Assembly (NCBI RefSeq): GCF_900090145.1
Contig: NZ_FMHI01000011.1
Span: forward strand, 62,001 to 126,000
Length of the DNA: 64,000 nucleotides
Direction of reading: 5' to 3'
Origin: Streptomyces sp. WMMB 322
GTDB taxonomy: Bacteria; Actinomycetota; Actinomycetes; Streptomycetales; Streptomycetaceae
Shown: positions 12,450 to 30,571 of the stretch, in pieces
Position numbering within the stretch: position 1 is the first letter of the stretch
How the letters are laid out: each line of letters starts with the position of its first letter
Program-made: the position numbers and the translations under genes
Notes under the pieces: generated by a model
Database searches by the model: none
Told to the model about the DNA's origin: nothing
Seen by the model: the letters and a program-made list of their open reading frames with translations, nothing else

Positions 12450-13247
12450 ATGGCTGCCTCCCCTGACTCCCCCGGGCCCGCAACCCCCGCACACGACGGG
12501 CCGACCGCCGCGAGCTCCTTGCGCGGCCCGCTCGTCGCGATCCTCAGCGGCGCGGGGATCTCCACGGACTCCGGCATCCCCGACTACCGCGGCCCGCAAG
12601 GGCTTTGGCGCAAGGATCCGGAGGCGGAGAAGCTCGTCACGTACGACTACTACATGAACGACCCGGACATCCGCCGCAAGTCGTGGCAGATGCGCCGCAC
12701 CAGCCCCACCTGGAACGCCCGCCCCAACGCGGCGCACGAGGCGATCGCGCAGCTGGAGAAGGCAGGCAAACCGGTGCGTGTCATCACGCAGAACGTGGAC
12801 GGGCTGCACCAGCTCGCGGGGCTGCCGGACCGCAAGGTACTTGAGCTGCACGGCAGTTCGCGCACGGTGGTGTGCACGCAGTGCGAGGCCGGGAGCACGA
12901 TGGCACAGGCCCTGGAGAGGGTCGAGGCCGGCGAGGAGGACCCCGCGTGCGTGGAGTGCGGCGGCATCCTCAAGTCGGGCACGGTCATGTTCGGGCAGGC
13001 CCTCGACCCCGAGGTGCTCGGGCAGGCGGTGGGCGTGGCCAAGGCGTGCGACGCCTTGGTGGCGGTCGGAACCTCGCTCCAGGTGCAGCCCGCGGCGTCG
13101 CTGGCGGAGATCGCCGTCGACCACGGCGCCCGCCTGATCATCGTCAACGCCGAGCCCACTCCGTACGACGGGCTGGCGGACGAGCTCATTCGCGAACCGA
13201 TCGGCGAGGCCCTGCCGGCGCTGCTCGAGCGGCTGCACGCGGCCTGA
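12450..13247 (+). CDS. Sir2-family NAD-dependent protein deacylase
   Basis: A 265-residue sirtuin. It shows the NAD-binding GAGISTDSGIPDYRG segment, the TQNVDGLH motif, the catalytic His in LELHGS, and a zinc site formed by CTQC and CVEC. It should remove acyl groups from lysines using NAD+, producing nicotinamide and O-acyl-ADP-ribose. The length fits single-domain bacterial sirtuins (CobB class). The ATG at 12450 is preferred; an in-frame TTG three codons upstream is possible. It is a single-gene unit between the importer operon and a membrane-protein operon. Confidence 0.92.
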   Translation: MAASPDSPGPATPAHDGPTAASSLRGPLVAILSGAGISTDSGIPDYRGPQGLWRKDPEAEKLVTYDYYMNDPDIRRKSWQMRRTSPTWNARPNAAHEAIAQLEKAGKPVRVITQNVDGLHQLAGLPDRKVLELHGSSRTVVCTQCEAGSTMAQALERVEAGEEDPACVECGGILKSGTVMFGQALDPEVLGQAVGVAKACDALVAVGTSLQVQPAASLAEIAVDHGARLIIVNAEPTPYDGLADELIREPIGEALPALLERLHAA

Positions 13248-13442: not shown

Positions 13443-14393
13443 GTGGCGCAGCGTGTTGGACGGGTGGAGCTGGGCGTCGGCTGGATCATCCGGAACCTGG
13501 ACGTCGTCATCGCCGTCGGACTGGGCCTGACGATCGGGTTCCTGGACGTCTTCGGGGACGTGGTCAGCGACGACGTCTCCTCCGGTGCGACTCTCCTCGT
13601 TCTCGGTGCACTCGCCGTGGGGTCGATGACGGAGCGCGTGCGCCGCCGGTCCGACATCCAGGAGGTGTCCGCCGATACGCGCCGTGCGCTGGAGGATCTG
13701 GCGATGGTGCGCTCACTGTCCGGCAGCGAGGTGGGTGAGGCGCTGAGCAAGGCCCGGGAGCAGACCAACCGCTGGTACTTCAAGGGCGGAACGGGCACCT
13801 ATCTGCGGGCGGTGACGCTGCCGCGCTGCGTGGAGACGGCCACCCGGCAGCGCACGCCCCTCAGCATCAAGATCGACATCATCAACCCCGGCAGTGAGAA
13901 GACCTGTTCGGACTACGCGCGCTTCCGGCAGACCTTCGCGCGGCAGCGGAACGTGGACGCTGCCAACGCCTGGACGGCGACGCGCACCCGCAAGGAGTCG
14001 TACGCGACCGTGCTGGCCGCCTGCTGGTACCGGCAGCGGCTGGACACGCTGGAGATCAGCGTGCATCTCTCGGCGGGAGTGCCGACGCTCCGCTTCGACC
14101 TGTCCGAATCCTGCCTTGTCATCACGCAGGACGACCCCAACCGCGTCAACCTCCTCGTCGCACGCGACCAGCCGCTCTACGACTACTACGTCACTGAGCT
14201 GCACCAGAGCAGGGAGCAGGCCGAGCGGCTGGACCTGCATGCGCTGCCGCCGCTGAGCGACGAGCCGACCGTCGACGAAGTACGGGCGGTTTTCGACCAT
14301 TTGAGGCTCCCGCTGCCCGCCGTCTTCACCGACGCCGACGTCGGCGAGATCATCGACAAGGCACTTCACGCGGAGGACCCGTACCGGAGGTGA
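13443..14393 (+). CDS. Two-TM membrane protein of unknown function
   Basis: I do not recognise this 316-residue protein. Its GTG start follows GGGGAGGGG at a spacing of 7, which fixes the start. Two hydrophobic segments near the N-terminus (about residues 10-30 and 45-60) are followed by RRR, suggesting a membrane hairpin with a cytoplasmic C-terminal domain of about 240 residues. That domain has a notable WYFKGGTGTYLRAVTLP block near residue 105 and ends in a helical acidic region. The layout (two TM plus a soluble domain) resembles membrane-anchored effectors seen in some bacterial conflict systems, but there is no proof. It is the first gene of a three-gene operon. Confidence 0.7.
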   Translation: MAQRVGRVELGVGWIIRNLDVVIAVGLGLTIGFLDVFGDVVSDDVSSGATLLVLGALAVGSMTERVRRRSDIQEVSADTRRALEDLAMVRSLSGSEVGEALSKAREQTNRWYFKGGTGTYLRAVTLPRCVETATRQRTPLSIKIDIINPGSEKTCSDYARFRQTFARQRNVDAANAWTATRTRKESYATVLAACWYRQRLDTLEISVHLSAGVPTLRFDLSESCLVITQDDPNRVNLLVARDQPLYDYYVTELHQSREQAERLDLHALPPLSDEPTVDEVRAVFDHLRLPLPAVFTDADVGEIIDKALHAEDPYRR

Positions 14394-14406: not shown

Positions 14407-15108
14407 ATGGACTACGACGAGCTCGAACATGCGCTGCGGAGCGGCTCCGCGGCACGCGCGCCGCGTGCCGCGGCGGCGGACGTCCTCGGTGAAATCGCTT
14501 CGGGGAAACGTGAGTTGAGAGCGGTACGGCATCCGCTGGGCTTTCTGTGCCTGCCCGTGGTGCGCGACGGGGAGCGGGGCGTGTGCGTCCATCTCTTCGG
14601 CGGCGAGATCCCGGCCGGGGAGCCCGCGGCGGCCGGAGTGCACGCGCACAGCTGGGAGTTGGTCAGCCATGTGCTCTACGGCCATGTCTCCAACGTCCCC
14701 GTGCGGGTCACGGACCCGGCGGCACCCGCACCGGCGTCCGGGCCGGACGCCGGCCCCTCCCCCGGGCCGACCCACCGTGTCTTCGAGGTGCACAGCGCAC
14801 CCGACGGCACGGACGAACTGCGGCCCACAGGGCGCCTCGTGCGCAGCGAGCCGGGCCCGGAACAGACCAGTACCGGCGGGGAGACCTACACACTGGCGGC
14901 CGGCGAGTTCCACTCGACCGTCGTCAGGAACGGCGAGCCCGCGGCAACACTCGTGCTGGGCAGGACGCTTCCGGACCGCAGCGACCTCTTCCTCGGACCG
15001 CTGCACGGCCCCGGCCACCGCACTGTGCGCCGGCTCTGCGGGGAAGAAGACACCCGAAGGACCGTGCGGGCTGCGCTGAGGAGGGTCCATGCAGGGCATC
15101 GGGAGTGA
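14407..15108 (+). CDS. Cupin-like protein of unknown function
   Basis: A 233-residue protein, 13 bp downstream of the membrane-protein gene and overlapping the next gene by 20 bp, so probably the middle gene of an operon. A cupin-type metal motif is suggested by VHAHSWELVSHVLYGHVSN (HxH followed by Glu and Gly) and by LAAGEFHSTVVRNG as the second motif. A Pro/Gly-rich insertion lies between them. Substrate and reaction are unknown; cysteine-dioxygenase-like folds share these motifs. The GGAGGTGA ribosome-binding site overlaps the upstream stop. Confidence 0.65.
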   Translation: MDYDELEHALRSGSAARAPRAAAADVLGEIASGKRELRAVRHPLGFLCLPVVRDGERGVCVHLFGGEIPAGEPAAAGVHAHSWELVSHVLYGHVSNVPVRVTDPAAPAPASGPDAGPSPGPTHRVFEVHSAPDGTDELRPTGRLVRSEPGPEQTSTGGETYTLAAGEFHSTVVRNGEPAATLVLGRTLPDRSDLFLGPLHGPGHRTVRRLCGEEDTRRTVRAALRRVHAGHRE

Positions 15109-15982
15109 CGCGGCTGCGGCCGCGCCCGGGAACGGCCGGCCGGGCGTGCACACCGGCGCGTACACGTACGAGCAGAAGGTCGCGGTCGAAGCGGCCGAGG
15201 AGGCCGGAGCGTTACTGAAGGCACGCTTCGCGCAGGCGCACACGGTCGGCAGGAAGGGCGACGGCGGCGATGTCGTCACCGACCTGGACCTGGCGGCGGA
15301 GAAGGTCATCCTCGGCCGGCTGCGCACCCACTTCCCGCACGAGCGGATCGTCTCCGAGGAGGCCGGGCTGCTGGATGCCTCCGGCAGCCGGACATGGCTG
15401 GTGGACCCGCTCGACGGCAGCAACAACGTGGCGATCGGGCTCACCGCCTACGCGGTCGGGATCGCGCTGTGCGTGGACGGTTCGCCCGTCGTCGGCGTGG
15501 TGCACGAGCCGGTGACAGGACGGACGTGGCACGCGGCGCTCGGCCAGGGCGCCTGGTGCGGCACCGCACGGCTCGGCGGCCCGCGCGGCGAACTGCCGCG
15601 CGGCGGCCCGGTTCTCGCGTGGACGCAGGGGCACGCGGTGGGCAGGAGCGACGGGCGCGCGCTGGCTCTGCGCCGGGCCCTGGAGCTGGACTCGCGGCGC
15701 GTACTGCAGCTGTGGGCACCGCTGCTGGGATGGACCATGCTGGCGAGCGGCACCATCGACGGGTACGCCGGCTACCGGGCGGAGGGCGTCGACTTCCCGG
15801 GCGGTGCACTGCTCGCCGCCGAGGCCGGCGTGGAGTTCCGTTCCCTCTCCGGCGGCGCCTTCCGGGTGGGCTTCGAGGGACCGGACTCGGGCCGCAGCTT
15901 CGTCGCGGCCCGCGGTGAGATGCTCGGGCGTCTGGTGGACCTGGCATCCGCGGCGTCCGGAAGCGTGCCCGGGGCGGAGTGA
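15089..15982 (+). CDS. IMPase-family phosphatase (second paralogue)
   Basis: A 297-residue member of the inositol-monophosphatase/CysQ superfamily. Metal-site motifs are DVVTDLDLAAE, IVSEEAG and TWLVDPLDGSNN; the C-terminal motif is a variant, VDFPGGALLAAEAG, where most family members have WD..AG. The ATG follows GAGGAGGG and lies inside the end of the cupin-like gene, so translation is probably coupled. Only low similarity to the other IMPase-like gene at 3.5 kb is apparent. The operon partners give no clear substrate; a nucleotide or sugar phosphate is possible. Confidence 0.8.
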   Translation: MQGIGSDAAAAAPGNGRPGVHTGAYTYEQKVAVEAAEEAGALLKARFAQAHTVGRKGDGGDVVTDLDLAAEKVILGRLRTHFPHERIVSEEAGLLDASGSRTWLVDPLDGSNNVAIGLTAYAVGIALCVDGSPVVGVVHEPVTGRTWHAALGQGAWCGTARLGGPRGELPRGGPVLAWTQGHAVGRSDGRALALRRALELDSRRVLQLWAPLLGWTMLASGTIDGYAGYRAEGVDFPGGALLAAEAGVEFRSLSGGAFRVGFEGPDSGRSFVAARGEMLGRLVDLASAASGSVPGAE

Positions 15983-16112: not shown

Positions 16113-17300
16113 TCAGACGAGGGCGAGCGCGGCGGTGGCCGACACGGTCCCCGTCACGGCCAGCACCAGCCCCGTGGTCATGAAGCGGCGCAGCGGGATC
16201 CGCGTGCCGTGCCAGCGGCAGCGCTCGAACCACAGCAGCGTCGCCAGTGACGCCCAAGGAGTCACCAGAGGGCCGACGTTGGTGCCGATGAGCAGGGCCA
16301 GCAGCTGGTGGTGGTTCCCGATCGGGACCGCCGCCTCCCCCGCGAGGTAGGCCGGGAGGTTGTTGAGGACGTTGGACAGGCCGGCACCCACGCCCGCCGA
16401 GCGGAGCATGCCCAGCGGGCCGCCGTCGGAGCCGATCGCCGCCGTGAGCAGATCGTGCAGCCCGTGCGCACTGACGGTCTCCACCACGAGGAACATGCCC
16501 GGCACCAGCATCAGCAGCCGCCACGGGACGAGCGAGAGCCGCAGCTCCGCTCTGCGTCTGAGCGCGAAGGCGGCGACGACCACGACAGCCGCCGTCAGCG
16601 ATGCGGACCACAGCGGCACGTCGATCACGAGAATCGACAGCAGAAAGCCGGCACAGGCGAGCGCACACACACGGAAGAGCACGGGGTCGGCGGGCCGCAG
16701 CGGCTGCGGCGGTATGTAACTCTCGGCGCCGCGCCGGCCGAGCCGCCAGTAGAAGCCCCACAGGCACGCCATGGTCACCAGGATCGAGACCAGTTGAGGC
16801 ACGCCCATGGTCGTGGCCATCTCGACGGGCGTGAGCGCGACACGGTCGGCGGCGAGCAGGTTGGTGAGGTTGGAGACGGGCAGCAGCAGGCTCGCCGTGT
16901 TCGACAGCCACACCGTCGTCATGGCCAGCGGCACGGCCGCGATACCGACCCGTGTGGAGAGCGCGAGCATCACGGGCGTGAGCAGCACCGCCGTGGTGTC
17001 CAGGTTGAGCGTGATCGTGGTGACGGAGGCGAAGAGCACGCACAGGCAGAACAGCAGCGGATAGCTGCCCTTCCCGGTGCGGGCGACCCACGAGGCGACG
17101 GCGTCGAAGACCTCCGCCCTGCCGGTCAGTTCGGCCAGGACGATCACCGTCGCGAGGAAGACCACGAGCGGGGCGATGCGGGTCATCGCCTGCCCGGCCG
17201 GGCCCGTGGGCAGGGCCCCGGTGGCCACCAGGAGGACGCCGCAGACGAGGAGTCCGCCGGCGAACCAGTCAAGCGGATGCGCTCTCTTCAGAATTCGCAC
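16113..17300 (-). CDS. SLC13/ArsB-type membrane permease
   Basis: A 395-residue, very hydrophobic protein with about 11 membrane segments and the ion-transporter features of the ArsB/NhaD/SLC13 group. These include a TLNLDTTAVLLTPV segment in the first half, WLSNTASLLLPVSNLTNLL after it, and the matching LSNVLNNLPAYL and IGTNVGPLVTPWAS elements in the second half. It likely exports or exchanges a small anion (arsenite-like, carboxylate or sulfate); no ars genes are adjacent. The GTG at 17300 lies only 33 bp from the divergent TIR-STAND start and lacks a clear ribosome-binding site. Confidence 0.8.
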   Translation of the reverse strand: MRILKRAHPLDWFAGGLLVCGVLLVATGALPTGPAGQAMTRIAPLVVFLATVIVLAELTGRAEVFDAVASWVARTGKGSYPLLFCLCVLFASVTTITLNLDTTAVLLTPVMLALSTRVGIAAVPLAMTTVWLSNTASLLLPVSNLTNLLAADRVALTPVEMATTMGVPQLVSILVTMACLWGFYWRLGRRGAESYIPPQPLRPADPVLFRVCALACAGFLLSILVIDVPLWSASLTAAVVVVAAFALRRRAELRLSLVPWRLLMLVPGMFLVVETVSAHGLHDLLTAAIGSDGGPLGMLRSAGVGAGLSNVLNNLPAYLAGEAAVPIGNHHQLLALLIGTNVGPLVTPWASLATLLWFERCRWHGTRIPLRRFMTTGLVLAVTGTVSATAALALV

Positions 17301-17333
17301 GCCAGACAGAATCCCACACGTGCGGTGAGGAGA

Positions 17334-20300
17334 ATGTCGCAGCCTGTCGAACCCGAGGTGCCCGACCTGCCGTTGAACTCCTACGATGCACACATGACGG
17401 GCAACGGGGAACTTGTGGGCCACACGCGGGACTTGGACTTCTTCATCAGCTACTCCCCGGCCGACGAGCAATGGGCCTCGTGGATCGCCTGGACGCTGGA
17501 GGAGGCCGGCTACCGCACCGTGATCCAGGCGTGGGACTTCGTCCCGGGCACGAACTTCATCGACTTCATGGACCGCGGCGTCAGCGAGTCCGTCGCCGTG
17601 ATCGCCGTCCTCTCCGGCCACTACGGGCGCTCCACGTACGGACGCATGGAGTGGCAGGCGGCGCTGCGTGCCGAGCCGGAGGCGCCCGAGCGCAAGCTGC
17701 TGACCGTGCGGGTGGAGGACATTCCCATCGAGGGCCTCCTCGCGACGATCACGTACGTCGACCTCGTGGGCGTCAGCGACACCGAGACGGCGCGCGAGAT
17801 GCTGCTCACGCGCGTCGGGCAGGCCGTCGAAGGGCACGCACGGCCGGGGCTGCGGCCCGGCTACCCGGGCGGCGCCGCCGGTGAGGTACCCGGGCCCCGC
17901 ACCCCCGAAGGCCAGAACGGCCCCGCCGAACCGGCCGGGCAGCGGCGCGAGGACGGGCAGCGCCCCCTGGGCCGTACGGGCTGGTCCGGCCGGCGGCGCC
18001 CCGCCAGGGCCCCGCAGTATCCGGCCGCACCGGGCGGAGGCACCGGGTCGCGGCAGGACGCCCTGTCCGTACTGCACGTGGCCGGCCCCAACTTCGGCCG
18101 CGGACGCGAACCCGACGCGCTGCTGCGGGAGATGTGGAGCGACCTGGTCGAACTGAAGGACGCGGGCGCGCCCGCGCCCGACCTCCTCGTCGTCTCCGGT
18201 GACCTGACGGCGTCCGGAAGTCCCCGCGAATGCGACCAGGCCCTCAACTTCCTGACGGGGCTGCGGTCCCAGCTGGACCTGCCGCCGCAGCGGATGGTGA
18301 TCGTGCCGGGCACGCAGGACGTCAGCCAGGCCGCGTGCCTGGGCTACTTCCACACCTGCGAGGCCGACGAGGTGCCGCCGCAGCCGCCGTACTGGCCCAA
18401 GTGGCGCCACTACACCCGGCTCTTCCGCGGTCTCTACCACGGCATGGACACCGTCTTCGAGAGCGACCAGCCCTGGACGCTCTTCCCCGTGCCCGAACTG
18501 CACACCGTCGTCGCGGGGTTCAACTCCTCCATCGCCTTCAGCCACCGCAAGGACGATCAGTACGGCTTCCTGGGGCGCGACCAGGCCACCTGGTTCTCCG
18601 AGGCGCTGCGCACGTACGAGGAGGAAGGCTGGCTGCGCATCGGCGTGCTGCGGCACCCGCTGACGGAGGGGCGGCAGCGGCCAGATGACGCGCCGGGCGG
18701 CCCGGGGCCGCTGCGCGACGCCGACACCTTCGCGCGGCTGACCGCGCGCCGCCTGCACTTCGTGCTGCACGGCCCCACCGGCGGCCCCCGCACCGCCTCC
18801 TCCGAACCGTTCCACGCCCGACTGTCCACCCCCGCAGGCACCTTGCCCCTGTTCGGCTCCGCCGCCCCGGCCCGCTGCGAACTGCTGCGCGTGGCCTCCG
18901 ACGGCGTCACACGCTGGACGGACGAGGCCGGCAGCGAGCCCGCGGAGTTCCCCCTCGAATGGCGCGCCGCCCACCGGATCTTCGCCGTCCCCGACGAGCC
19001 GGCCGCCCCCCTGCCCGTCCCGGCGCCCACGGCGCCCGAGGACGACAGGGACAACCGTCCCCTCGACGAGCCCGCCGACTCGCTCGCCGAGCGCGTACGC
19101 GAGGTGTGCCGGGCCCGCCACGAGAGCGTGCGACTGCGCGACGTCCCCCGCCGCGACCATCACGACATGGCCCAGATCATGGCCACCTGGCACGAGGAAG
19201 GCGTGGTGCGGCAGCAGCGCATCGCCGTCCATCCGGGCACACCGACGGACGAGGAGATCGACCGCTTCGTCGCGCAGGCACACGCGACGGACACCGGCTC
19301 CGAGGCGGAGGTCGTCCACGAGGGGCCCGCGCCGGACCGTTCGCTGCGGGAGCGGGCGAGCCGGCGGGGCATCCGCGTCCGCAGCTTCCTCGAGTTCCAG
19401 GGTCTGCTCGACCTGCGCGGATACGTCGCCGCCCAGACGGCGGGCCTCAGCGCCGACGACCGCTATCGGCCGGGGCTCTACCTGCCCGGGCGCTACCGTG
19501 ACGCGGAACGCCCGGACGGCGAGGAACGCGACGGCCTCGTCGAGAACATGCTCGACCAGCTGGCGGCCGACCACGGCCGCTTCGTCCTGCTCCTGGGGGA
19601 CTTCGGGCACGGAAAGACCTTCGCCCTGCGGGAGTTGGCGCGCCGCATCCCCGAACAGCTGCCGCATCTCACGCCGTTGCTCATCCCGCTCAACACCCTC
19701 GACCGCGCGCACAGCCTCGAAGGTCTCGTCGCCGCGCACCTGGCCGGTCACGGCGTCGACACGATCGACCTGCGGGCGCTGCGCTACATGCTCGCGCAGG
19801 GGCGCGTCGTGCTGCTCTTCGACGGCTTCGACGAACTGGTCAACCGCGTCAGCTACGACCGGGCCGCCGACCACCTCCAGGTCCTGCTGGACGCGTCCGT
19901 GGACAACGCCAAGATCGTCGTCAGCAGCCGCACTCAGCACTTCAAGTCGCAGGCGCAGGTCCTCACCGCCCTGGGCGAGCGCGTCGGGATGCTCCCGCGG
20001 CGCCGCGTGCTCTCCCTCGAAGGCTTCGTCCCGGCGCAGATCCGCAGGTATCTCGTCAACCGCTACGGCGACGAGGCACTTGCCGACGAGCGCTTCCGCC
20101 TGCTGCAGAACATTCCCGACCTGCTGGAACTGAGCCGCAACCCGCGGCTGCTCAGCTTCGTCGCCGATCTGGGCACCGAGCAGCTCCGCGCGGTGGCGGG
20201 GGCCGGACGCGCTCTGAGCCCCGCGGGGCTGTACGAGGACGTCTTCGCCGCCTGGCTCGCCTTCGAGGAGCGCCGCGGCCAGGGCGGCCCCGGCGCCGCT

Positions 20301-23300
20301 CCCGGCCTGAGCATCGAGCAGCTGTGGGCCGCGGTCACCGCGCTGGCGCAGCGGCTGTGGGAGAGCGGCCGCAGCGCCCTCCGCCTCGACGAACTGACCG
20401 AGACCGTCGCCGAGACGCTCAGCGGGCTGGTGGGAAGCGGCTCGATGTCCACCCAGGAGAGCGCGCAGGCCGTGGGCGCGGGCAGTCTCCTGGTGCGCAC
20501 GGAGGAAGGGCTCTTCCACTTCATTCACGGCTCCGTCGTCGAATGGCTCATCGCACGCGAAGCGGCGGCCCAACTGGCCCTGGGCGACGACACGCTGCTC
20601 GCCGCACGTCCCCTCACCCAGCTCGCCGTGGAGTTCTTCTGCGACCTGGCCGACCACGAGCTGTGCACCGAGTGGGTCCAGAGCGTGCTCAACTCCCCCG
20701 GGCCCCGCACGAGCGAGGCCGCCCGCGCCAACGCGGTGCGCGTCATCGACCGGCTCCGGGTGCCGGCCGACGCCGACCTGCGCGGCGCCCGCCTCGTCGG
20801 CGAGGATCTCTCGGCCCGTGACTTCTCCGGCGTCGACCTGACCGGGGCCGACCTGACCGACGCCCGGCTGCTGGGCACCAACCTCTCCGGAGCGGTGCTG
20901 CGCGGCGCCCGCCTCGTCGGCGCCCGCCTGGACGAGGCCGACCTCAGCGGTGCCGACCTCACCGGCGCGGACCTGCGCACGGCGAGGCTGACCAGGACCG
21001 ACCTGCGCGGGGCCAGGCTGACGGACAGCCGGTGGAACAGGGCCGCGCTGATCGACCCCGTCACCGACGAACAGGCCCAATCGGCACCGGAGTTGGCCAC
21101 GGCCGCAATCGCGCCGGGCATGCCGGTCGAGGCGGGGCTGCGCCCCTCGGGCGTCGGCGTCCCCTACGGCTTCGACATGCGCACGAGCCGCCTGCCCGAA
21201 CCGGTCTCCTACAGTCCCGAGGGTGAACTCCTCGCCGTGGGCAGCGAGGACGGCGGCGTCCTGGTGTGCGCCGCGGACACCGGCCGGGCCGTGCGTACGC
21301 TGCACGGCCACGAAGGACGGGTCTACGCCGTCAAGTTCCGCGCGAACGTGCTCGCCACGGGCGCGGCCGACGGAGATGTGCGGCTCTGGGACCCGGTCTC
21401 GGGCCGCTGCCTGCACCGCATCGAGGTCCACCCCGGCGGTGTCTGGCCCGTCTCTCTCGACGCCACAGGCCGGCAGCTGGCCACCGGCGACGCCGAAGGG
21501 ATGGTGACGCTGTGGGACGTGGACAGCGGCCGGCCCCTGCACCGGCTGCCCGGGCACGCCGTCCCCGTCTACACGGCCGTCTTCAGCCCCGACGGCACCA
21601 CTCTCGTCACCGGCGACGCGGGCGCGGCCCTGCGGATCTGGGACACCCGCACCGGGCGGTGCACCGCCGAGGTGCACGGCCATCAAGGGGCCCTCTACCG
21701 GGCCAGGTTCAGCCCCGACGGGACGCTGCTGGCGACGGGCGACCGCGGCGCGGACGGCCACGGAACCGTACGCGTGTGGGAGATGCCGGCCACCGGCGAA
21801 GGCCCGCAGGAGGAGGAGCCCCGCCTGCTGCACGAGTTCGCGGGCCACACGGGCCACGTCTACACGCTCGACTTCCACCCGTCGGGCGGGCTGCTCGTCA
21901 GCGGCGACACCGACGGACAGGTGCGCCTGTGGGATCCCCGCGTCGGCGCTCCGGCCGGCACCCTGGAACGCGGCTCCGGCGCCGTCTACCAGGTGCTCTT
22001 CGGGGACGAGGGCCGGCTCCTCGCCGCCTGCGACAGCGACGGCGCGGTACGCCTGTGGCGGCTCAACTCCCCCGGCAGCGGCGGGCGTTCGGTGGCACTG
22101 CTTCCGCAGCAGCCCGTCGAGCACCGCGGCTCCGCCTGGGCGTGCGCCTTCCGTCCGCACGACCGTCAGCTGCTCACCGTCGGCAACGACGGCGGCGCAC
22201 AGATCTGGGACGCCGGATCAAGTCAGGGCAAGCGGATCCTGCGCGGCCACGGGCGGCGCGTCAACACCCTCGCCTTCAGCTGCGACGGCGCCCTCCTCGC
22301 CACCGGAGGCAACGACGGGCTGGTGCGCATGTGGGACGCCCGCACGGGACGGCGCACGGCCGAACTCTCCGGCCGCGGCGACCGGTTGGTCTCCGCGGTC
22401 TTCAGCCCCGCCGGTCCCGTGCTCGGCACCGCGAGCAACGACGGCGACGTCTACCTGTGGAACGCCACGAACGGCGAGTACATGCGGGAGATCGACGTCG
22501 AGACCGACCACACCTGGGCGGAGGCCTTCAGCGGCGACGGTGAACTCCTGGCCACCGCGAACGACGACGACACCGTCCAGCTGTGGTGGCGGGCCACGGG
22601 TGCACACCTGACGACACTGTCGCTGCACCGCGGCCGGGTGCGATCCATCGCGTTCCGCGAGGACGGCGCGCTGCTGGCCACCGGATGCGACGACAGCCAC
22701 GTGCGGCTGTGGGAGCCCGCCACCGGACGCCTCGTCGCCGACCTCGAGGGGCACACCGACCGCGTGTACGCCGTGACCTTCTGCTGCGGCAACAGCGCGC
22801 TGCTGAGCGCCTCCTGGGACGGAACGGCCGTCGTGTGGGAGGACGGCGAGCAGCGGCACGTGCTGCGCGGGCACCGCGGACGGCTGTGGACGGCGGCGGC
22901 GCACCCGCGGCGTCCGCTGCTGGCGACCGCCGGGGACGACCGCGCCGTCTGCCTGTGGGACGCGGACAGCGGCGAGATGACGGCACGGCTGACGGGACAC
23001 ACCGGCCGCGTGCACTCGCTCGCCTTCAGCCCGTGCGGTACGCAGCTGGCGAGCGGCGGCGAGGACGGCACGGTCCGCCTGTGGAACCTCCCCGACGGTG
23101 CGGATCCGGCGGCCGGCCCCGCTCTGCGCGCCACCCTGATCGGCGTGCCCGGCGGCTGGGCGGCGCTGACGCCGAGCGGCGGCTACAAGTACGAGGGCGA
23201 TGTGACGGGCGAGTTCTGGCACGTCGTCGGCATGACACGGTTCACCCCGGGAGAGCTCGACGCCTACCTCCCGGGCGTCCACCGCCTCGCTCTCGACGCG

Positions 23301-23309
23301 GAGTTGTGA
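17334..23309 (+). CDS. TIR - pseudo-phosphoesterase - NACHT STAND - pentapeptide - WD40 protein
   Basis: A 1,991-residue multidomain protein. Residues about 30-166 are a TIR domain (DFFISYSPADEQW, AWDFVPGTNF), with the candidate catalytic Glu106 in RMEWQAA. A Pro/Gly/Arg-rich linker (167-243) precedes a calcineurin-type phosphoesterase fold (244-515) that lacks most metal ligands. A conserved block of unknown fold (583-735) follows. The NACHT NTPase has Walker A GDFGHGKT (755-762) and Walker B LLFDGFDEL (D830). Pentapeptide repeats (1147-1239, ADLxGA type) lead into about 15 WD40 blades (1292-1924) and a 65-residue tail. By analogy, WD40/pentapeptide parts sense, NACHT oligomerises and TIR consumes NAD+, giving anti-phage abortive infection; this is inference. 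ATG 17334 follows GAGGAG closely; ATG 17394 is an alternative. Confidence 0.9.
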   Translation: MSQPVEPEVPDLPLNSYDAHMTGNGELVGHTRDLDFFISYSPADEQWASWIAWTLEEAGYRTVIQAWDFVPGTNFIDFMDRGVSESVAVIAVLSGHYGRSTYGRMEWQAALRAEPEAPERKLLTVRVEDIPIEGLLATITYVDLVGVSDTETAREMLLTRVGQAVEGHARPGLRPGYPGGAAGEVPGPRTPEGQNGPAEPAGQRREDGQRPLGRTGWSGRRRPARAPQYPAAPGGGTGSRQDALSVLHVAGPNFGRGREPDALLREMWSDLVELKDAGAPAPDLLVVSGDLTASGSPRECDQALNFLTGLRSQLDLPPQRMVIVPGTQDVSQAACLGYFHTCEADEVPPQPPYWPKWRHYTRLFRGLYHGMDTVFESDQPWTLFPVPELHTVVAGFNSSIAFSHRKDDQYGFLGRDQATWFSEALRTYEEEGWLRIGVLRHPLTEGRQRPDDAPGGPGPLRDADTFARLTARRLHFVLHGPTGGPRTASSEPFHARLSTPAGTLPLFGSAAPARCELLRVASDGVTRWTDEAGSEPAEFPLEWRAAHRIFAVPDEPAAPLPVPAPTAPEDDRDNRPLDEPADSLAERVREVCRARHESVRLRDVPRRDHHDMAQIMATWHEEGVVRQQRIAVHPGTPTDEEIDRFVAQAHATDTGSEAEVVHEGPAPDRSLRERASRRGIRVRSFLEFQGLLDLRGYVAAQTAGLSADDRYRPGLYLPGRYRDAERPDGEERDGLVENMLDQLAADHGRFVLLLGDFGHGKTFALRELARRIPEQLPHLTPLLIPLNTLDRAHSLEGLVAAHLAGHGVDTIDLRALRYMLAQGRVVLLFDGFDELVNRVSYDRAADHLQVLLDASVDNAKIVVSSRTQHFKSQAQVLTALGERVGMLPRRRVLSLEGFVPAQIRRYLVNRYGDEALADERFRLLQNIPDLLELSRNPRLLSFVADLGTEQLRAVAGAGRALSPAGLYEDVFAAWLAFEERRGQGGPGAAPGLSIEQLWAAVTALAQRLWESGRSALRLDELTETVAETLSGLVGSGSMSTQESAQAVGAGSLLVRTEEGLFHFIHGSVVEWLIAREAAAQLALGDDTLLAARPLTQLAVEFFCDLADHELCTEWVQSVLNSPGPRTSEAARANAVRVIDRLRVPADADLRGARLVGEDLSARDFSGVDLTGADLTDARLLGTNLSGAVLRGARLVGARLDEADLSGADLTGADLRTARLTRTDLRGARLTDSRWNRAALIDPVTDEQAQSAPELATAAIAPGMPVEAGLRPSGVGVPYGFDMRTSRLPEPVSYSPEGELLAVGSEDGGVLVCAADTGRAVRTLHGHEGRVYAVKFRANVLATGAADGDVRLWDPVSGRCLHRIEVHPGGVWPVSLDATGRQLATGDAEGMVTLWDVDSGRPLHRLPGHAVPVYTAVFSPDGTTLVTGDAGAALRIWDTRTGRCTAEVHGHQGALYRARFSPDGTLLATGDRGADGHGTVRVWEMPATGEGPQEEEPRLLHEFAGHTGHVYTLDFHPSGGLLVSGDTDGQVRLWDPRVGAPAGTLERGSGAVYQVLFGDEGRLLAACDSDGAVRLWRLNSPGSGGRSVALLPQQPVEHRGSAWACAFRPHDRQLLTVGNDGGAQIWDAGSSQGKRILRGHGRRVNTLAFSCDGALLATGGNDGLVRMWDARTGRRTAELSGRGDRLVSAVFSPAGPVLGTASNDGDVYLWNATNGEYMREIDVETDHTWAEAFSGDGELLATANDDDTVQLWWRATGAHLTTLSLHRGRVRSIAFREDGALLATGCDDSHVRLWEPATGRLVADLEGHTDRVYAVTFCCGNSALLSASWDGTAVVWEDGEQRHVLRGHRGRLWTAAAHPRRPLLATAGDDRAVCLWDADSGEMTARLTGHTGRVHSLAFSPCGTQLASGGEDGTVRLWNLPDGADPAAGPALRATLIGVPGGWAALTPSGGYKYEGDVTGEFWHVVGMTRFTPGELDAYLPGVHRLALDAEL

Positions 23310-24161: not shown

Positions 24162-25733
<1,572 letters not shown>

Positions 25734-25800
25734 GGCAGACACCTCTTCTGCTGGGTGCTGGGGCTTCTTCGGTTGTCGTTGCGGGTTCGCCGTTGTGGCA

Positions 25801-25857
25801 TCGCAGGTGCGGTGCCGCGTCGCAGGTGCGGTGCCGCGTCGCAGGTGCGGTGTCACG
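25801..25857. repeat. Tandem repeat, three 19-bp units
   Basis: The unit TCGCAGGTGCGGTGCCGCG occurs at 25801-25819 and 25820-25838 identically and at 25839-25857 with two changes. It lies in the 156-bp gap between the LLM oxidoreductase and the NCS1 permease. There are no spacers, so it is not CRISPR-like. A role as operator array or slippage product is open. Confidence 0.75.
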
Positions 25858-25889
25858 GCGGCCGGGACGGGCAGGCGCGACGCCCCCGC

Positions 25890-26891
25890 TCAGCCGTTGA
25901 GGGCGGGGATGATGTCCCGGCCGTAGGCGTCGATGACCGACTCCGTGGCGTCGTGCATGGCGTACACGGCGAACTGGTCGACTCCGAGATCGCGCAGGGT
26001 CCGCAGCTTCTCGATGTGCGCCTCGGCCGGGCCCAGCAGGCAGAAGCGGTCGACGACGTCGTCGGGCACGAACTCGGTGTCGGGGTTTCCGGCCCGCCCG
26101 TGGTGTGCGTAGTCGTAGCCCTGACGTGCCTTGATGTAGCTGGTCAGCGCCGTGGGCACGAGGTCGGAGTTCTCGCCGTAGCGCGTGACGAGGTCGGCGA
26201 CGTGGTTGCCGACCATGCCGCCGAACCAGCGGCACTGCTCCCGGGCGTGCTGGAGGTCGTCGCCGACGTAGGCCGGGGCGGCCACGCAGATGGTGACGTC
26301 GTCGGGGTCGCGGCCGGCCTGGGCGGCGGACACCCGCACCGCCTTGACCATCGACTCCGTCAGATACGGGTCGGCGAGCTGGAGGATGAAGCCGTCCGCC
26401 TCACGGCCCGCCATGGCCAGCGCCTTCGGCCCGTACGCGGCCATCCACACCGGCAGCTTCCCGTCCCGCACCCACGGCAGCTTCAGCGGTGTGCCGTCGA
26501 TGACCGCTTCGCGTCCCTCCGCAAGGTCGCGGATAACGGACATCGCTTCGCTGACCCGGGCGAGGGTGTTGGGCTTGCGTCCGGCCACGCGCATCGCCGA
26601 GTCTCCCCGGCCGAGGCCGCACACGGTGCGGTTGCCGTACATCTCGTTCAGGGTGGCGAAGGTGGAGGCCGTGACCTCCCACGAGCGGGTTCCGGGGTTG
26701 GTGACCATCGGGCCGACGATCAGCCGCTCGGTGTTCTCCAGCACGCGGCTGTGAATGACGAACGGCTCCTGCCACAGCACGGCGGAGTCGAAGGTCCACC
26801 CGTAGCGGAAGCCCTGCCGCTCGGCACGCCGCATGAGGCCGACGGTCCGCGAGCCGGGCGGGTCCGTCTGCAGTACGAGTCCGAAGTCCAT
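25890..26891 (-). CDS. LLM-class F420/flavin-dependent oxidoreductase (TIGR03842-like)
   Basis: A 333-residue luciferase-like TIM-barrel oxidoreductase. It starts MDFGLVLQTDPPG and contains the CGLGRGDSAMRVAGRKP segment and PVWMAAYGPKALAMAGREADG, typical of the family found in hydantoin/pyrimidine gene clusters. Cofactor F420 or FMN is expected. In this cluster it may act on a pyrimidine or hydantoin ring, possibly in place of an absent dihydropyrimidine dehydrogenase; this is inference. It lies 28 bp after the dihydropyrimidinase. Confidence 0.85.
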   Translation of the reverse strand: MDFGLVLQTDPPGSRTVGLMRRAERQGFRYGWTFDSAVLWQEPFVIHSRVLENTERLIVGPMVTNPGTRSWEVTASTFATLNEMYGNRTVCGLGRGDSAMRVAGRKPNTLARVSEAMSVIRDLAEGREAVIDGTPLKLPWVRDGKLPVWMAAYGPKALAMAGREADGFILQLADPYLTESMVKAVRVSAAQAGRDPDDVTICVAAPAYVGDDLQHAREQCRWFGGMVGNHVADLVTRYGENSDLVPTALTSYIKARQGYDYAHHGRAGNPDTEFVPDDVVDRFCLLGPAEAHIEKLRTLRDLGVDQFAVYAMHDATESVIDAYGRDIIPALNG

Positions 26892-26919
26892 GCCCTGTCC
26901 GTCCTTTCAACTGCTGTTT

Positions 26920-28326
26920 TCAGCCGAGGAGTTGGCACAGACCGCGGGGGGTGTACTGCCCGTGCCCCGCGCGTCCTGTGTAGGTGCGCCTGTCGATCAC
27001 GGTCTCGCCGCGCGAGAGCACCGTCTCGACCTGACCGGTGATCTGCTTGCCCTCGTACGCCGAGTAGTCGACGTTCATGTGGTGCGTGTCGACGGAGAGC
27101 GTCTGCTGCGCCTGCGGGTCGTAGACGACGATGTCGGCGTCCGAACCGGGCTGCAGAGTGCCCTTCTTGGGATACAGCCCGAACATCCGGGCCGGTGTGG
27201 CGCACGCGATCTCGATCCAGCGGCGGCGCGAGATGTGGCCGTCGAGCACGGCCTGATGGAGCAGGTCCATCCGGTGTTCGACGCCCGGCATCCCGTTGGG
27301 GATCTTGGAGAAGTCGCCGCGGCCGAGTTCCTTCTGCCCGACGAAGCAGAACGGGCAGTGGTCGGTGGAGACGACCTGGAGGTCGTTGGTGCGCAGCCCC
27401 CGCCACAGCGCGGCCTGGTGCTCGCGCGGCCGCAGCGGCGTGGAGCACACGTACTTGGCGCCGCCGAAGTCCGGCTCGGCCAGGTTGTCCGTGGAGAGGA
27501 ACAGGTACTGCGGGCAGGTCTCGCCGAAGACCGGGAGGTCCTTGTCCCGGGCCGCGGCCAGTTCCGCGACGGCCTCCTCGGCCGAGACGTGCACGACGTA
27601 CAGCGGTGCACCCGCCACCCGCGCCAGCTGGATCGCCCGGTGGGTGGCTTCCGCCTCCAGCAGGGCCTTGCGCACCTCGCCGTGGTGGCGCGGGTCGGTC
27701 CGGCCGGCGGCCAGCGCCTGTTCGACGAGGACGTCGATGGCGATGCCGTTCTCGGCGTGCATCATCGTCAGGCCGCCGTTGGCGGCGGTGCGCTGCATGG
27801 CGCGCAGGATCTGCCCGTCGTCGCTGTAGAAGACGCCCGGGTAGGCCATGAACATCTTGAAGGAGGTGATGCCCTCCTCCACCAGCATGTCCATCTCCTT
27901 CAGCGTCCCCTGGTTCACATCGGAGAGAATCATGTGGAACGCGTAGTCGACGGCGCACTGGGAGTCGGCCTTGGCGTGCCAGCGGTCCAGGCCCTCACGA
28001 AGCGCGTGGCCCTTCGTCTGGATGGCGAAGTCGACGATGGTGGTCGTGCCGCCCCAGGCTGCGGCCCGGGTTCCGCTCTCGAAGTCGTCGGAGGAGAAGG
28101 TGCCGCCGAAGGGCATGTCCATGTGGGTGTGCGGGTCGACGCCGCCCGGGATGACGTACTTGCCGGTGGCGTCGATGGTGTGCTCCGCGCTCCAGCCCTC
28201 GGCGACGCTGCTTCCGGTGGCGGCGGTGGCGACGATCCTTCCGTCCTCGACGAGTACGTCCGCGTGCGTCTCGTCGGACGCGGTGATGACGAGCCCCCCG
28301 CGAACGACCGTACGTGAGTGCGTCAT
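26920..28326 (-). CDS. Dihydropyrimidinase (D-hydantoinase)
   Basis: A 468-residue amidohydrolase opening the ring of dihydrouracil/dihydrothymine or 5-substituted hydantoins. The binuclear zinc ligands are visible: HTH in GGVDPHTHMDMPF, the carbamylated Lys in SFKMFMAYPG, His in TMMHAENG and VVHVSAEEA, and Asp in STDHCPF. The ATG overlaps the aminotransferase stop (ATGA, 28323-28326). The product, an N-carbamoyl amino acid, is the substrate of the nitrilase-like enzyme encoded by the first gene of the operon. Confidence 0.93.
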   Translation of the reverse strand: MTHSRTVVRGGLVITASDETHADVLVEDGRIVATAATGSSVAEGWSAEHTIDATGKYVIPGGVDPHTHMDMPFGGTFSSDDFESGTRAAAWGGTTTIVDFAIQTKGHALREGLDRWHAKADSQCAVDYAFHMILSDVNQGTLKEMDMLVEEGITSFKMFMAYPGVFYSDDGQILRAMQRTAANGGLTMMHAENGIAIDVLVEQALAAGRTDPRHHGEVRKALLEAEATHRAIQLARVAGAPLYVVHVSAEEAVAELAAARDKDLPVFGETCPQYLFLSTDNLAEPDFGGAKYVCSTPLRPREHQAALWRGLRTNDLQVVSTDHCPFCFVGQKELGRGDFSKIPNGMPGVEHRMDLLHQAVLDGHISRRRWIEIACATPARMFGLYPKKGTLQPGSDADIVVYDPQAQQTLSVDTHHMNVDYSAYEGKQITGQVETVLSRGETVIDRRTYTGRAGHGQYTPRGLCQLLG

Positions 28327-29666
28327 TGCGAACTCTTCCCTCCCAGCTCGTTGTTGGCCGTGCGCAGGGCGCGTTCCAGGATTCCGGCGCCCTCCTCCGC
28401 CTCTGCGACGGTGAGACTCAGCGGCGGTGCGATGCGCAGCACGCTGCTCGTGGAGTGGCCGCCGCCCTTGCCGATGAGCAGACCTCCCTCCCGCGCCGCC
28501 TCCAGCACCAGCGAAGCCGCCTGAGGCGACGGGTCGCCGGTGTCCGGATCGACCAGTTCCACCCCGGCCATCAGGCCCCTGCCGCGCACCTCCCGTACGA
28601 CGTCCAGGCCGGCGGACGCGGCCCGAAGCCGCTCCATGAGCAGACCGCCGACGCGGCGCGCGTTGCCCTGAAGGTCGTGCTCCAGCAGGTAGTTGAGGTT
28701 GGCGTTGCCGGCGGCCATGGTGACGGGACTGCCGCCGAAGGTGGAGATGGAGTTGGCGGGAAGGCAGTTCATGACGTCGGCCCGTGTGACGACACCGCCG
28801 ATGGACATGCCGTTGCCGATGCCCTTGGCGAAGGTGAGCATGTCGGGCGGGCCGGCCCGGTCGTGGGCCTGCCAGCCCCAGAAGTGCTCGCCGGTGCGGC
28901 CCCAGCCCGTCTGCACCTCGTCGCTGATCCACAGGATGCCGCGCTTGTCGAGGACTTCGCGGAACGCGGCGAACAGGCCGTCGGGCGGGGAGGTGAACCC
29001 GCCGACGCCCTGCACCGGTTCGGCGATCAGAGCCGCCACGTCACCGCCGGTCTGGCCGAGCATGTCCTCCAGGTCCGCGGTGCAGGCCGCGATGAACTCC
29101 GCGTCGTCCAGCGCCGCGTAGGGACCGCGGGTGCGAACGCCTCCGTGCACGTAGAGCGTCTGGAGGGGCGAGAGGCTCGTGGGCGACCATGCGCGGTTGC
29201 CCGTGATGCCGATCGCCGAGAAGGAACGGCCGTGGTAGCTGTTGCGCAGCGCGAGGATCTGGTTGGAGCGGCGGTAGGTGGTGGCCAGCAGCAGTGCCGT
29301 GTCGTTGGCCTCGGTGCCGGAGGTGGTGAAGAAGACACGGGCGTCGGGAATCCCGGACAGGGCGGCGATGCGTTCGGCCAGCTCCACCATGGGCCGGTCG
29401 AGGTAGAGGCTGGAGGTGTGCAGGATGCGCCCCGCCTGCTCGCTGACGGCCTTGGTGACCTCCGGCAGGGCGTGGGCCGTCATCGTGGTGAGGATGCCGC
29501 CGAAGAAGTCGAGGTAGCGGTTGCCCTCGCCGTCCCAGACGTACCGTCCCTCACCGTGGGTGATCTCCATCGGCTCGTCGTAGTACAGCGCAAGCCAGTC
29601 GGGCATGACGGCGCGGTGACGCCGAAGGAGCGCCTCGGCCGGTCCGGCGGTGTGGTGGGTGCTCAT
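28323..29666 (-). CDS. Class III aminotransferase (beta-alanine/omega-amino acid type)
   Basis: A 447-residue PLP-dependent class III transaminase. The cofactor region includes FTTSGTEANDTAL, SYHGRSFSAIG, ISDEVQTGWGRTGEHFWGW and the Schiff-base Lys in FAKGIGNGMSIGG. In this operon it most probably transaminates beta-alanine or 3-aminoisobutyrate released from the pyrimidine ring. Its start overlaps the upstream gene by one base (TGATG at 29664-29668). Confidence 0.9.
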   Translation of the reverse strand: MSTHHTAGPAEALLRRHRAVMPDWLALYYDEPMEITHGEGRYVWDGEGNRYLDFFGGILTTMTAHALPEVTKAVSEQAGRILHTSSLYLDRPMVELAERIAALSGIPDARVFFTTSGTEANDTALLLATTYRRSNQILALRNSYHGRSFSAIGITGNRAWSPTSLSPLQTLYVHGGVRTRGPYAALDDAEFIAACTADLEDMLGQTGGDVAALIAEPVQGVGGFTSPPDGLFAAFREVLDKRGILWISDEVQTGWGRTGEHFWGWQAHDRAGPPDMLTFAKGIGNGMSIGGVVTRADVMNCLPANSISTFGGSPVTMAAGNANLNYLLEHDLQGNARRVGGLLMERLRAASAGLDVVREVRGRGLMAGVELVDPDTGDPSPQAASLVLEAAREGGLLIGKGGGHSTSSVLRIAPPLSLTVAEAEEGAGILERALRTANNELGGKSSQ

Positions 29667-30508
29667 CAGGGCTGCACCAGTCCGTCGTAGGCGTCGGGGC
29701 GGCGGTCCCGGTAGAAGGCCCACTGCCGGCGCACCTCTTCGATCATCCCGAAGTCGAGGTCGCGGACGAGGAGTTCCTCTTCCTTGTCGCTCGCGACGTC
29801 GCCGACGAACTGGCCGCGCGGGTCGACGAAGTAGCTCGTGCCGTAGAAGTCGTTGTCGCCGTACTCCTCGGTGCCGACCCGGTTGATGGCGGCGATGAAG
29901 TATTCGTTGGCGACTGCGGCGGCGGGCTGTTCCAGCTGCCACAGGTAGGAGGACAGCCCCCGGTGCGTGGCCGAGGGGTTGTAGACGAGCTGGGCGCCCT
30001 CCAGGCCGAGGGCTCGCCAGCCCTCGGGGAAGTGACGGTCGTAGCAGATGTAGACGCCGACCTTGCCCACGGCCGTGTCGAAGACGGGCCAGCCCACGTT
30101 GCCCGGCTTGAAGTAGAACTTCTCCCAGAATCCCTTTACCTGGGGAATGTGGTGCTTGCGGTACTTGCCGAGGTAGGTGCCGTCGGCGTCGATGACCGCT
30201 GCGGTGTTGAAATAGAAGCCCGACTGCTCCTTCTCGAAGACCGGGACGACGACGACCATTCCCGTCTCCCGTGCGAGCTCCTGCATCCGCCGCACCGTCG
30301 GGCCGTCCGGCACGGGCTCGGCCCACTTGTAGTGCTCGGCGTCCTGCACCTGGCAGAAGTACGGGGCGTTGAAGACCTCTTGGAACCCGATGACCTCGGC
30401 ACCCTGCCGGGCCGCCTCGCGTGCGTGCCGCTCATGCTTCTCGATCATCGATTCCGTGTCGCCTGTCCAGGTCGCCTGCACGAGGGCGGCGCGCACAACA
30501 TCGGGCAT
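29666..30508 (-). CDS. Nitrilase-fold N-carbamoyl amidohydrolase (beta-ureidopropionase type)
   Basis: A 280-residue nitrilase-superfamily hydrolase with the catalytic Glu in GFQEVFNAPYF, Lys in LGKYRKHHIP and Cys in YICYDRHFPEGWRALG. It should hydrolyse N-carbamoyl-beta-alanine to beta-alanine, CO2 and ammonia. AAAGGAG lies 6 nt before the ATG at 30508; an in-frame ATG at 30559 is less likely. It is the first gene of the operon (amidohydrolase, aminotransferase, dihydropyrimidinase, LLM oxidoreductase, then permease). Confidence 0.92.
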   Translation of the reverse strand: MPDVVRAALVQATWTGDTESMIEKHERHAREAARQGAEVIGFQEVFNAPYFCQVQDAEHYKWAEPVPDGPTVRRMQELARETGMVVVVPVFEKEQSGFYFNTAAVIDADGTYLGKYRKHHIPQVKGFWEKFYFKPGNVGWPVFDTAVGKVGVYICYDRHFPEGWRALGLEGAQLVYNPSATHRGLSSYLWQLEQPAAAVANEYFIAAINRVGTEEYGDNDFYGTSYFVDPRGQFVGDVASDKEEELLVRDLDFGMIEEVRRQWAFYRDRRPDAYDGLVQP

Positions 30509-30571
30509 GAGCAGCTCCTTTGCCGGGAGGTCAAGGCCGTTCGACACGCGTAGATCCACGTGAGAATGTGA

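What the first reader, a model, noticed from the sequence alone, without database searches (positions are those of the whole stretch)
17334..23309. Single-gene TIR-phosphoesterase-NACHT-pentapeptide-WD40 protein, a candidate stand-alone immune system
One 1,991-residue chain combines an NADase-type TIR domain (candidate catalytic Glu106), an oligomerising NACHT STAND ATPase with intact Walker A and B, a pentapeptide helix of about 18 repeats and about 15 WD40 blades, enough for two propellers. In established systems TIR domains deplete NAD+ on activation and STAND proteins sense phage products. The double repeat sensor fused to a phosphoesterase-like module is a less familiar order and could be a distinct Avs-like or antiphage STAND subtype.
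Basis: partly seen in the sequence, partly recalled or inferred. Interest (0 to 1): 0.88.

Follow-up and report, generated by a model that had tools for sequence, protein, structure and literature searches.

The report
TIR-NACHT receptor in conserved gene block
A Streptomyces genome carries a very large immune-type receptor, built like the NLR proteins of animals and plants, whose second enzyme-like part has lost its active site and which keeps the same four neighbour genes in many actinomycetes.

Summary
The ORF and its domains are real.

It is not a one-off: 80 named actinomycete loci carry it. TIR Glu106 is invariant (77/77), Walker A/B too (86/86). The MPE is a pseudoenzyme in every close member examined (83/83 keep at most 3 of 8 metal or catalytic positions). 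Four distant relatives keep all 8 (Gln for one His); the one scanned matches models of the validated antiphage proteins DS-8 and DS-9. The MPE looks like a retired second effector.

It is probably not stand-alone. In 67 of 71 loci the order is the same: membrane/PLD-like protein, cupin-like protein, inositol-monophosphatase-like enzyme, divergent ArsB/CitMHS-like permease, receptor. Outside neighbours are rarely shared. Of 54 genus genomes without the receptor, 51 lack the permease and 53 the membrane protein.

Best reading: a STAND receptor that fires a TIR NADase, core of an apparently undescribed gene block. Antiphage function is plausible but untested.

The parts
17394..23309 (+). Receptor gene, probable CDS (1,971 aa).
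17382..17387 (+). TACGAT, -10-like hexamer 6 nt before ATG 17394; suggests a leaderless transcript
   Evidence: TACGAT also in 5 of 17 other loci (L033, L034, L035, L037, L041); inference, no transcription-start data
17439..17804 (+). TIR domain (residues 36-157), candidate catalytic Glu106
   Evidence: TIR_2, E 1.7e-34; E106 77/77, W107 77/77
18066..18968 (+). Calcineurin-like phosphoesterase fold, pseudoenzyme (about residues 245-545)
19077..19415 (+). NA-iREase3, NACHT-associated inactive restriction-endonuclease fold (582-694)
   Evidence: PF22739, E 8e-37; MspJI and AspBHI, weak matches
19578..20060 (+). NACHT STAND ATPase (about 749-909), Walker A 755-762, Walker B 827-834
   Evidence: key residues 86/86
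20094..20768 (+). Region C-terminal to NACHT (921-1145), conserved
20769..21053 (+). Pentapeptide repeat helix, 16-18 quintets (1146-1240)
21189..23108 (+). WD40 region, 15 strand-end motifs, enough for two propellers
23124..23306 (+). Conserved C-terminal tail after the propellers (1931-1991)
16113..17303 (-). Divergent ArsB/CitMHS-like permease, block member
   Evidence: CitMHS E 1.7e-31, ArsB E 1.3e-25
15089..15982 (+). Inositol-monophosphatase-family enzyme, block member; if it starts at ATG 15089 it overlaps the preceding gene by 20 nt
   Evidence: E 6.9e-37
14407..15108 (+). Cupin-like protein, no Pfam or NCBIfam hit, block member (name inferred from conserved HxH and FH motifs, not from a search)
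13464..14393 (+). Protein with an N-terminal hydrophobic segment and a predicted PLD-like fold but no HxK motif, block member
   Evidence: (no family)

Best explanation
The protein is a bacterial NLR-like (STAND) receptor. At rest the NACHT domain holds it in a monomeric ADP form (inferred). The WD40 propellers, perhaps with the pentapeptide helix, recognise a trigger (inferred). NACHT then oligomerises and brings TIR domains together, and the TIR cleaves NAD+ or makes an ADP-ribose-type signal through Glu106 (inferred from invariance). The phosphoesterase module is a retired effector: it is homologous to MPEs with an intact site like those of DS-8/DS-9, lost its metal site, and is kept with the inactive REase as a structural, nucleotide-binding or regulatory adaptor between TIR and NACHT (loss shown, new role inferred). 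The receptor belongs to a five-gene block with a membrane-anchored PLD-like protein, a cupin-like protein, an IMPase-like phosphatase and a permease (linkage shown, function inferred). The likeliest biological role is growth arrest or cell death on invasion.
For: Invariant TIR Glu (77/77 sequences; 106/109 in a wider set, the three exceptions lying where the alignment is uncertain) and Walker A/B key residues (86/86). MPE: both His of the GHxH motif are absent in 84/84 aligned sequences and the first Asp is Gly in 80 of 81 with a residue there; 83/83 close loci keep at most 3 of 8 positions, while 4 distant relatives keep all 8, counting Gln as allowed at the DxH position, where all four have Gln. 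The one of these that was scanned, L124, matches Metallophos (E 2.3e-11) and, below the curated cut-offs, DS9_1 (E 3.5e-29) and DS8 (E 2.9e-14) models. The N-terminal effector slot swaps: trypsin-like protease in L026, another TIR-like sequence in L181 (by eye). In TIR-bearing members the MPE may be intact, dead or absent, so its catalysis there is dispensable, whereas the TIR Glu stays. Block order and orientation constant in 67 of 71 loci; neighbours outside the block shared by at most 14% of locus pairs below 85% receptor identity. In 61 genus genomes, own included: permease 7/7 with and 3/54 without the receptor; membrane protein 6/7 and 1/54. In 79 class genomes the membrane-protein profile occurs only in the two that carry this receptor clade.
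Against: No assay of NADase or phage phenotype. No defence gene recognised among 10 window ORFs scanned. No relative found in the phage collection or in a viral-contig scan that reaches close relatives only. Propellers are not hypervariable: mean commonest-residue frequency 0.71-0.72, below TIR (0.86) and NACHT (0.84) but not below MPE (0.69) or iREase (0.68), which gives no sign of a fast arms race at the sensor. Co-occurrence counts are not corrected for phylogeny, and cupin and IMPase were not tested in the genome samples. Three genomes have the permease alone and one has a weak membrane-protein/cupin pair alone, so the partners are not strictly dependent. Some loci have several kb between IMPase and permease (for example L077, L097).
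Confidence: 0.55

Rival explanations
1. Single-gene antiphage receptor of the bNACHT kind; the linked genes are passengers or metabolic neighbours of a common integration site.
For: DS-8 is described as a single-protein system (PMC13092281, passages read). Related receptors on the other side of the tree occur without the block: 6 of 6 examined neighbourhoods (five f20 loci and L229) showed none of the four genes. Three genomes have the permease alone.
Against: 67 of 71 loci keep order and orientation across at least three families while outside neighbours are lost. In L228 a membrane-protein/cupin pair (28-30% identity) is still next to the receptor but on the other strand, which descent of a static region would not predict.
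Confidence: 0.22
2. A housekeeping or developmental signalling receptor: it guards or regulates a small-molecule pathway (IMPase-like enzyme, permease, cupin) and alters NAD+ metabolism or morphology rather than fighting phage.
For: Constant context of non-defence genes; propellers not hypervariable; metabolic-type partners.
Against: Patchy presence (7 of 61 genus genomes), effector swap to a protease, and relation of the MPE to validated antiphage proteins are typical of conflict systems.
Confidence: 0.18
3. The phosphoesterase is still an enzyme with a rearranged metal site.
For: GD Asp (70 of 84), GxxD Asp (83 of 84), Asn397 (83 of 84) and His441 (83 of 84) are conserved.
Against: The first Asp is Gly in 80 of 81 sequences with a residue there, no sequence has His or Gln at the DxH position, and both His of the GHxH motif are absent in 84 of 84; 83/83 close loci keep at most 3 of 8 positions.
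Confidence: 0.05

Closest known systems
DS-8 (DefensePredictor, PMC13092281): metallophosphatase-NACHT antiphage protein
   Same: Phosphoesterase and NACHT on one chain; a distant relative of our protein with intact MPE (L124) matches the DS8 model (E 2.9e-14, below the cut-off).
   Different: DS-8 needs its catalytic MPE residues (passages read); here they are lost, a TIR precedes the MPE, and pentapeptide plus WD40 follow. The window protein has no DS8 hit at E 0.01.
DS-9 (DefensePredictor, PMC13092281): metallophosphatase plus HAD phosphatase, two genes
   Same: MPE module aligns over 281-489 (E 1.7e-13).
   Different: 50 bits against a cut-off of 420; DS-9 is two genes with a HAD partner; an IMPase-family gene sits in the block instead; the MPE is dead here.
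bNACHT proteins, e.g. bNACHT25 (PMC12169576)
   Same: Effector - NACHT - C-terminal sensor layout; NACHT motifs intact.
   Different: bNACHT25 uses a PD-(D/E)xK nuclease effector; that text has no occurrence of TIR, WD40 or beta-propeller. Here the effector is TIR and two dead modules lie between it and NACHT.
STAND and effector-swap conflict proteins of multicellular bacteria (PMC7159879 and PMC8195603)
   Same: TIR, calcineurin-like and trypsin-like effectors exchange at the N terminus; pentapeptide and propeller repeats are listed among their parts (passages read).
   Different: Neither describes this architecture or block in the passages read.

Membership tests
Bacterial NACHT/STAND receptor with TIR effector | NACHT with intact Walker A and B | tested here: met
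   E 3.6e-11; 86/86
Bacterial NACHT/STAND receptor with TIR effector | N-terminal TIR with candidate catalytic Glu | tested here: met
   (77/77); activity itself not testable
Bacterial NACHT/STAND receptor with TIR effector | C-terminal repeat sensor | tested here: met
   (repeats present; ligand unknown)
Bacterial NACHT/STAND receptor with TIR effector | Antiphage activity | not testable with these tools
   no assay
DS-8 | Catalytically intact metallophosphatase required for defence | tested here: not met
   requirement from PMC13092281
DS-8 | Passes NCBIfam NF053861 cut-off (790 bits) | tested here: not met
   no hit at E 0.01; distant relative L124 51.8 bits
DS-9 | Passes NF053862 cut-off (420 bits) | tested here: not met
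   50.2 bits
DS-9 | HAD phosphatase partner | tested here: not met
   none among the six neighbours scanned with Pfam
Avs (AVAST) | Match to Avs models in PADLOC | tested here: not met
   five PADLOC families at E 0.01, none Avs: HEAT-ARM_XIII, bSEFIR, two Aga TIR models, PDC-S66
EruA NACHT antiphage protein | Passes NF058535 cut-off (1000 bits) | tested here: not met
   20.2 bits
MoxR-vWA ternary systems | MoxR ATPase and vWA genes alongside | tested here: not met
   absent among the six neighbours scanned with Pfam; wider surroundings not scanned

The most novel reading that the evidence does not exclude
A five-gene actinomycete immune module: a TIR-NACHT receptor carrying two dead nuclease/phosphoesterase folds as decoy-like adaptors, working with a membrane-anchored PLD-like protein and a cupin-like protein (a pair that also occurs without this receptor, including on plasmids) and with a phosphatase and permease that handle the NAD+-derived or a related small molecule.
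Probability: 0.3. Interest if true: 0.8.

Novelty: new variant of a known kind. Interest (0 to 1): 0.6.

Why it matters
It offers a graded series from a receptor with two apparently intact enzymes (TIR and MPE) through partial loss to a one-enzyme receptor with a kept pseudoenzyme, or with the module absent, which makes the fate of a surplus effector testable. If the block is a unit, it adds a conserved multi-gene NLR-type system that does not sit among recognised defence genes, where island-based searches could miss it.

Tried and rejected
Stand-alone reading: rejected as most likely after the synteny and co-occurrence tests. Active phosphoesterase: rejected on ligand loss. Avs membership: rejected. 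Mobile-element cargo: no match in phages, none in two viral-contig scans, one with a single protein and one with the membrane-protein alignment; in plasmids 8 records matched, of which only one covers most of the query, an 11.85-Mb Nonomuraea record that is filed as a plasmid but has the size of a chromosome, and seven cyanobacterial records match the NACHT part at 23-33% identity. Hypervariable sensor: not supported. PDB sequence search with the middle region gave nothing useful. The phylum sample of 90 genomes gave only the own genome. The named-genome scan kept the best 80 of 349 relatives, so counts on L033-L112 describe close members only.

Counting rules. Dropped as duplicates: L022, L023, L031, L032; also L198, L200, L201 and frame-broken L025, and L128-L131. 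The 83 are the 80 named loci plus L021, L024 and L026; a few of them (L042, L052, L087, L095) have a cut or interrupted MPE, and positions they lack count as lost, so the column counts are the cleaner evidence. The second of the 8 positions accepts His or Gln. One search used a chosen 71 rows and a midpoint root. One search used 71 of 80 loci (the rest have too little upstream sequence) and tests order and orientation, not adjacency. One search compared up to three predicted genes on each side in 69 loci (2,346 pairs). Fisher p-values (2.8e-7 for the permease, 8.7e-7 for the membrane protein) ignore phylogeny.

Papers: passages only of PMC13092281, PMC7159879, PMC8195603, PMC12169576, PMC13236601 (a CARD-NLR-like system, not closely related) and PMC10853773 (other inactive REases); everything else was seen as search listings.
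Full report
Observation. The + strand reading frame 17334-23309 is open and codes for a 1,991-residue chain. Profile searches give TIR_2, an inactive-REase domain (NA-iREase3), NACHT, pentapeptide repeats and WD40. The phosphoesterase slice has no Pfam hit but aligns to the NCBIfam DS9_1 antiphage phosphoesterase model (E 1.7e-13, 50 bits against a cut-off of 420), to a relative with a recognised Metallophos domain (34% identity; Pfam E 2.3e-11), and by predicted fold to Rv0805 (TM by target 0.73-0.75), GpdQ and SMPDL3A; the following part weakly matches MspJI and AspBHI (model pLDDT 74, pTM 0.60). The pentapeptide count is 16 by a simple motif count and 18 by eye; 15 WD40 strand ends are seen. 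The protein therefore probably has 1,971 residues and may be read from a leaderless message (inference). A 2,015-codon frame on the other strand has its GC bias in the wrong codon position and is taken as a GC artefact.

Family. The own genome has one full-length copy. A scan of named genomes gave 349 relatives, the best 80 kept, in Streptomyces, Kitasatospora, Streptacidiphilus, Streptosporangium, Sphaerisporangium, Microbispora, Thermocatellispora, Nonomuraea, Actinomadura and an unplaced Streptosporangiaceae MAG. Of these 80, 73 show TIR, MPE, iREase, NACHT, pentapeptide and WD40 in one frame; of the other 7, four are cut by a contig end and three have no TIR hit in the same frame. In unnamed samples relatives occur in 7 of 61 genus genomes, 8 of 80 order genomes (own and one weak match included), 5 of 79 class genomes, 23 of 35 genomes of one family, f20, and 1 of 90 phylum genomes, the own one.

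Active sites. TIR Glu106 and Trp107 are invariant in 77 of 77 sequences, the Walker A residues GxxGxGKT and Walker B LLFDGFDE in 86 of 86. Over a wider set Glu106 is kept in 106 of 109; the three exceptions (L177, L193, L195) lie where the alignment is uncertain. The phosphoesterase is different. In 84 aligned sequences both His of the GHxH motif are gone in 84, no sequence has His or Gln at the DxH position, and the first Asp is Gly in 80 of the 81 with a residue there, while the GD Asp stays in 70 and His441 in 83. Scored over 8 positions (Gln allowed at DxH), 83 of 83 close loci keep at most 3, a few of them because the module is cut. Four f20 loci (L124, L127, L192, L194) keep all 8, with Gln at DxH; L125 keeps 5; twelve rows of that comparison have no MPE hit. 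L124, the one scanned, matches the DS9_1 (E 3.5e-29, 102 bits) and DS8 (E 2.9e-14, 52 bits) models, below their cut-offs. DS-8 is a single MPE-NACHT protein and DS-9A an MPE; mutating predicted catalytic residues of their metallophosphatase domains lost defence (PMC13092281, passages). In a 71-row NACHT tree with a midpoint root, the window protein lies on the 40-row side of a 100/100 branch, where every MPE is dead (39) or absent (1); the other 31 rows hold 4 intact, 1 partial, 15 dead and 11 absent; the tree needs 5 changes for 'dead' and 3 for 'absent'. Reading: the MPE is a second effector that was retired, probably more than once. The N-terminal slot also swaps: L026 has a trypsin-like protease in place of TIR.

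Neighbourhood. Upstream lie a protein with an N-terminal hydrophobic segment (13464), a cupin-like protein (14407), an inositol-monophosphatase-family enzyme (15089) and a divergent ArsB/CitMHS-like permease (16113). The permease is found in 74, the IMPase in 72 and the membrane protein in 71 of the 80 loci. Of 71 loci with enough upstream sequence, 67 keep the same order and orientation; two lack the membrane protein, one lacks membrane protein and cupin, one has the set rearranged. Several kb lie between IMPase and permease in some, such as L077 and L097. Control: in 69 loci (2,346 pairs), neighbours outside the block are shared by 38% (upstream) and 64% (downstream) of pairs above 85% receptor identity, 9% and 14% at 70-85%, 2% and 10% at 60-70%, and about 0% below. 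In 61 genus genomes, own included, the permease (E up to 1e-60) is in 7 of 7 with and 3 of 54 without the receptor; the membrane protein in 6 of 7 and 1 of 54 (Fisher, not corrected for phylogeny; cupin and IMPase not tested this way). In 79 class genomes the membrane-protein profile is found only in G000 and G091, the two with this receptor clade, and not in the three with other relatives.

Variants of the block. In f20, L223 and L225 keep membrane protein, cupin, IMPase and receptor; the divergent permease is missing there, and a distant permease homologue (about 32% identity) lies beyond the receptor instead. L227 shows cupin and such a distant permease, L226 only the cupin, L224 none. L228 has a membrane-protein/cupin pair on the other strand next to a receptor without MPE, with a separate Pfam-recognised phosphoesterase gene beside the pair. 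Six of six examined neighbourhoods from the other side of the tree (five f20 loci and L229) show none of the four genes. The membrane protein's model (pLDDT 78) resembles PLD-superfamily proteins (E 5e-5, TM by query 0.37), but it has no HxK motif. The pair also occurs without this receptor in G065 (38-39% identity) and, more distantly, on a Rhodococcus and a Methylobacterium plasmid, with a recombinase gene nearby in both.

Mechanism and limits. The likely mechanism is ligand sensing by the repeats, NACHT oligomerisation and TIR NAD+ cleavage; only conservation and linkage are shown. Against a phage role: one weak PADLOC hit among 10 window ORFs scanned, one of which is probably not a gene (predicts 49 genes); no relative in the phage collection or in a viral-contig scan that reaches close relatives only; propellers not hypervariable, at 0.71-0.72 against TIR 0.86, NACHT 0.84, MPE 0.69 and iREase 0.68. 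For it: the TIR part also matches the PADLOC bSEFIR model (E 8.6e-9). Paper searches for this architecture or block showed no description in their listings or in the passages I opened. The library holds open-licence papers only, so this is weak evidence of novelty.

Noticed in passing
window 16113-22160 (-): 2,015-codon open frame antisense to the receptor; GC bias at the wrong codon position, taken as a GC artefact.
   Followed up: yes
L124 tail; G092: One f20 genome has five places matching the receptor, some on short contigs, and one of them ends in near-identical adjacent WD40 repeats, suggesting recent blade amplification.
   Followed up: no
L023/L087 and L025: Receptor genes with a broken frame (within the MPE, or between iREase and NACHT); real decay or assembly error not resolved.
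   Followed up: partly
L219, L220, L221: Three Streptomyces genomes keep the permease with none of the other four genes in the 18 kb fetched.
   Followed up: partly
L238:599-3712: On the Methylobacterium plasmid the membrane-protein/cupin pair lies near a Pfam-recognised metallophosphoesterase and an ORC-CDC6-like ATPase.
   Followed up: no
L228:8365-9258 (-): Separate metallophosphoesterase gene beside the pair, next to a receptor that lacks its own MPE.
   Followed up: partly
L237:5064-5735 (+): On the Rhodococcus plasmid a trypsin-like protease gene stands directly before the membrane-protein/cupin pair; L026 has a trypsin-like domain fused to the receptor.
   Followed up: no
window 12519-13247 (+): Sir2-family deacetylase next to the block; shared by only 2 of 80 loci.
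   Followed up: yes
window 24162-30547 (-): Probable hydantoin or pyrimidine catabolism cluster with an NCS1 permease; apart from the permease this is a guess from the translations.
   Followed up: no
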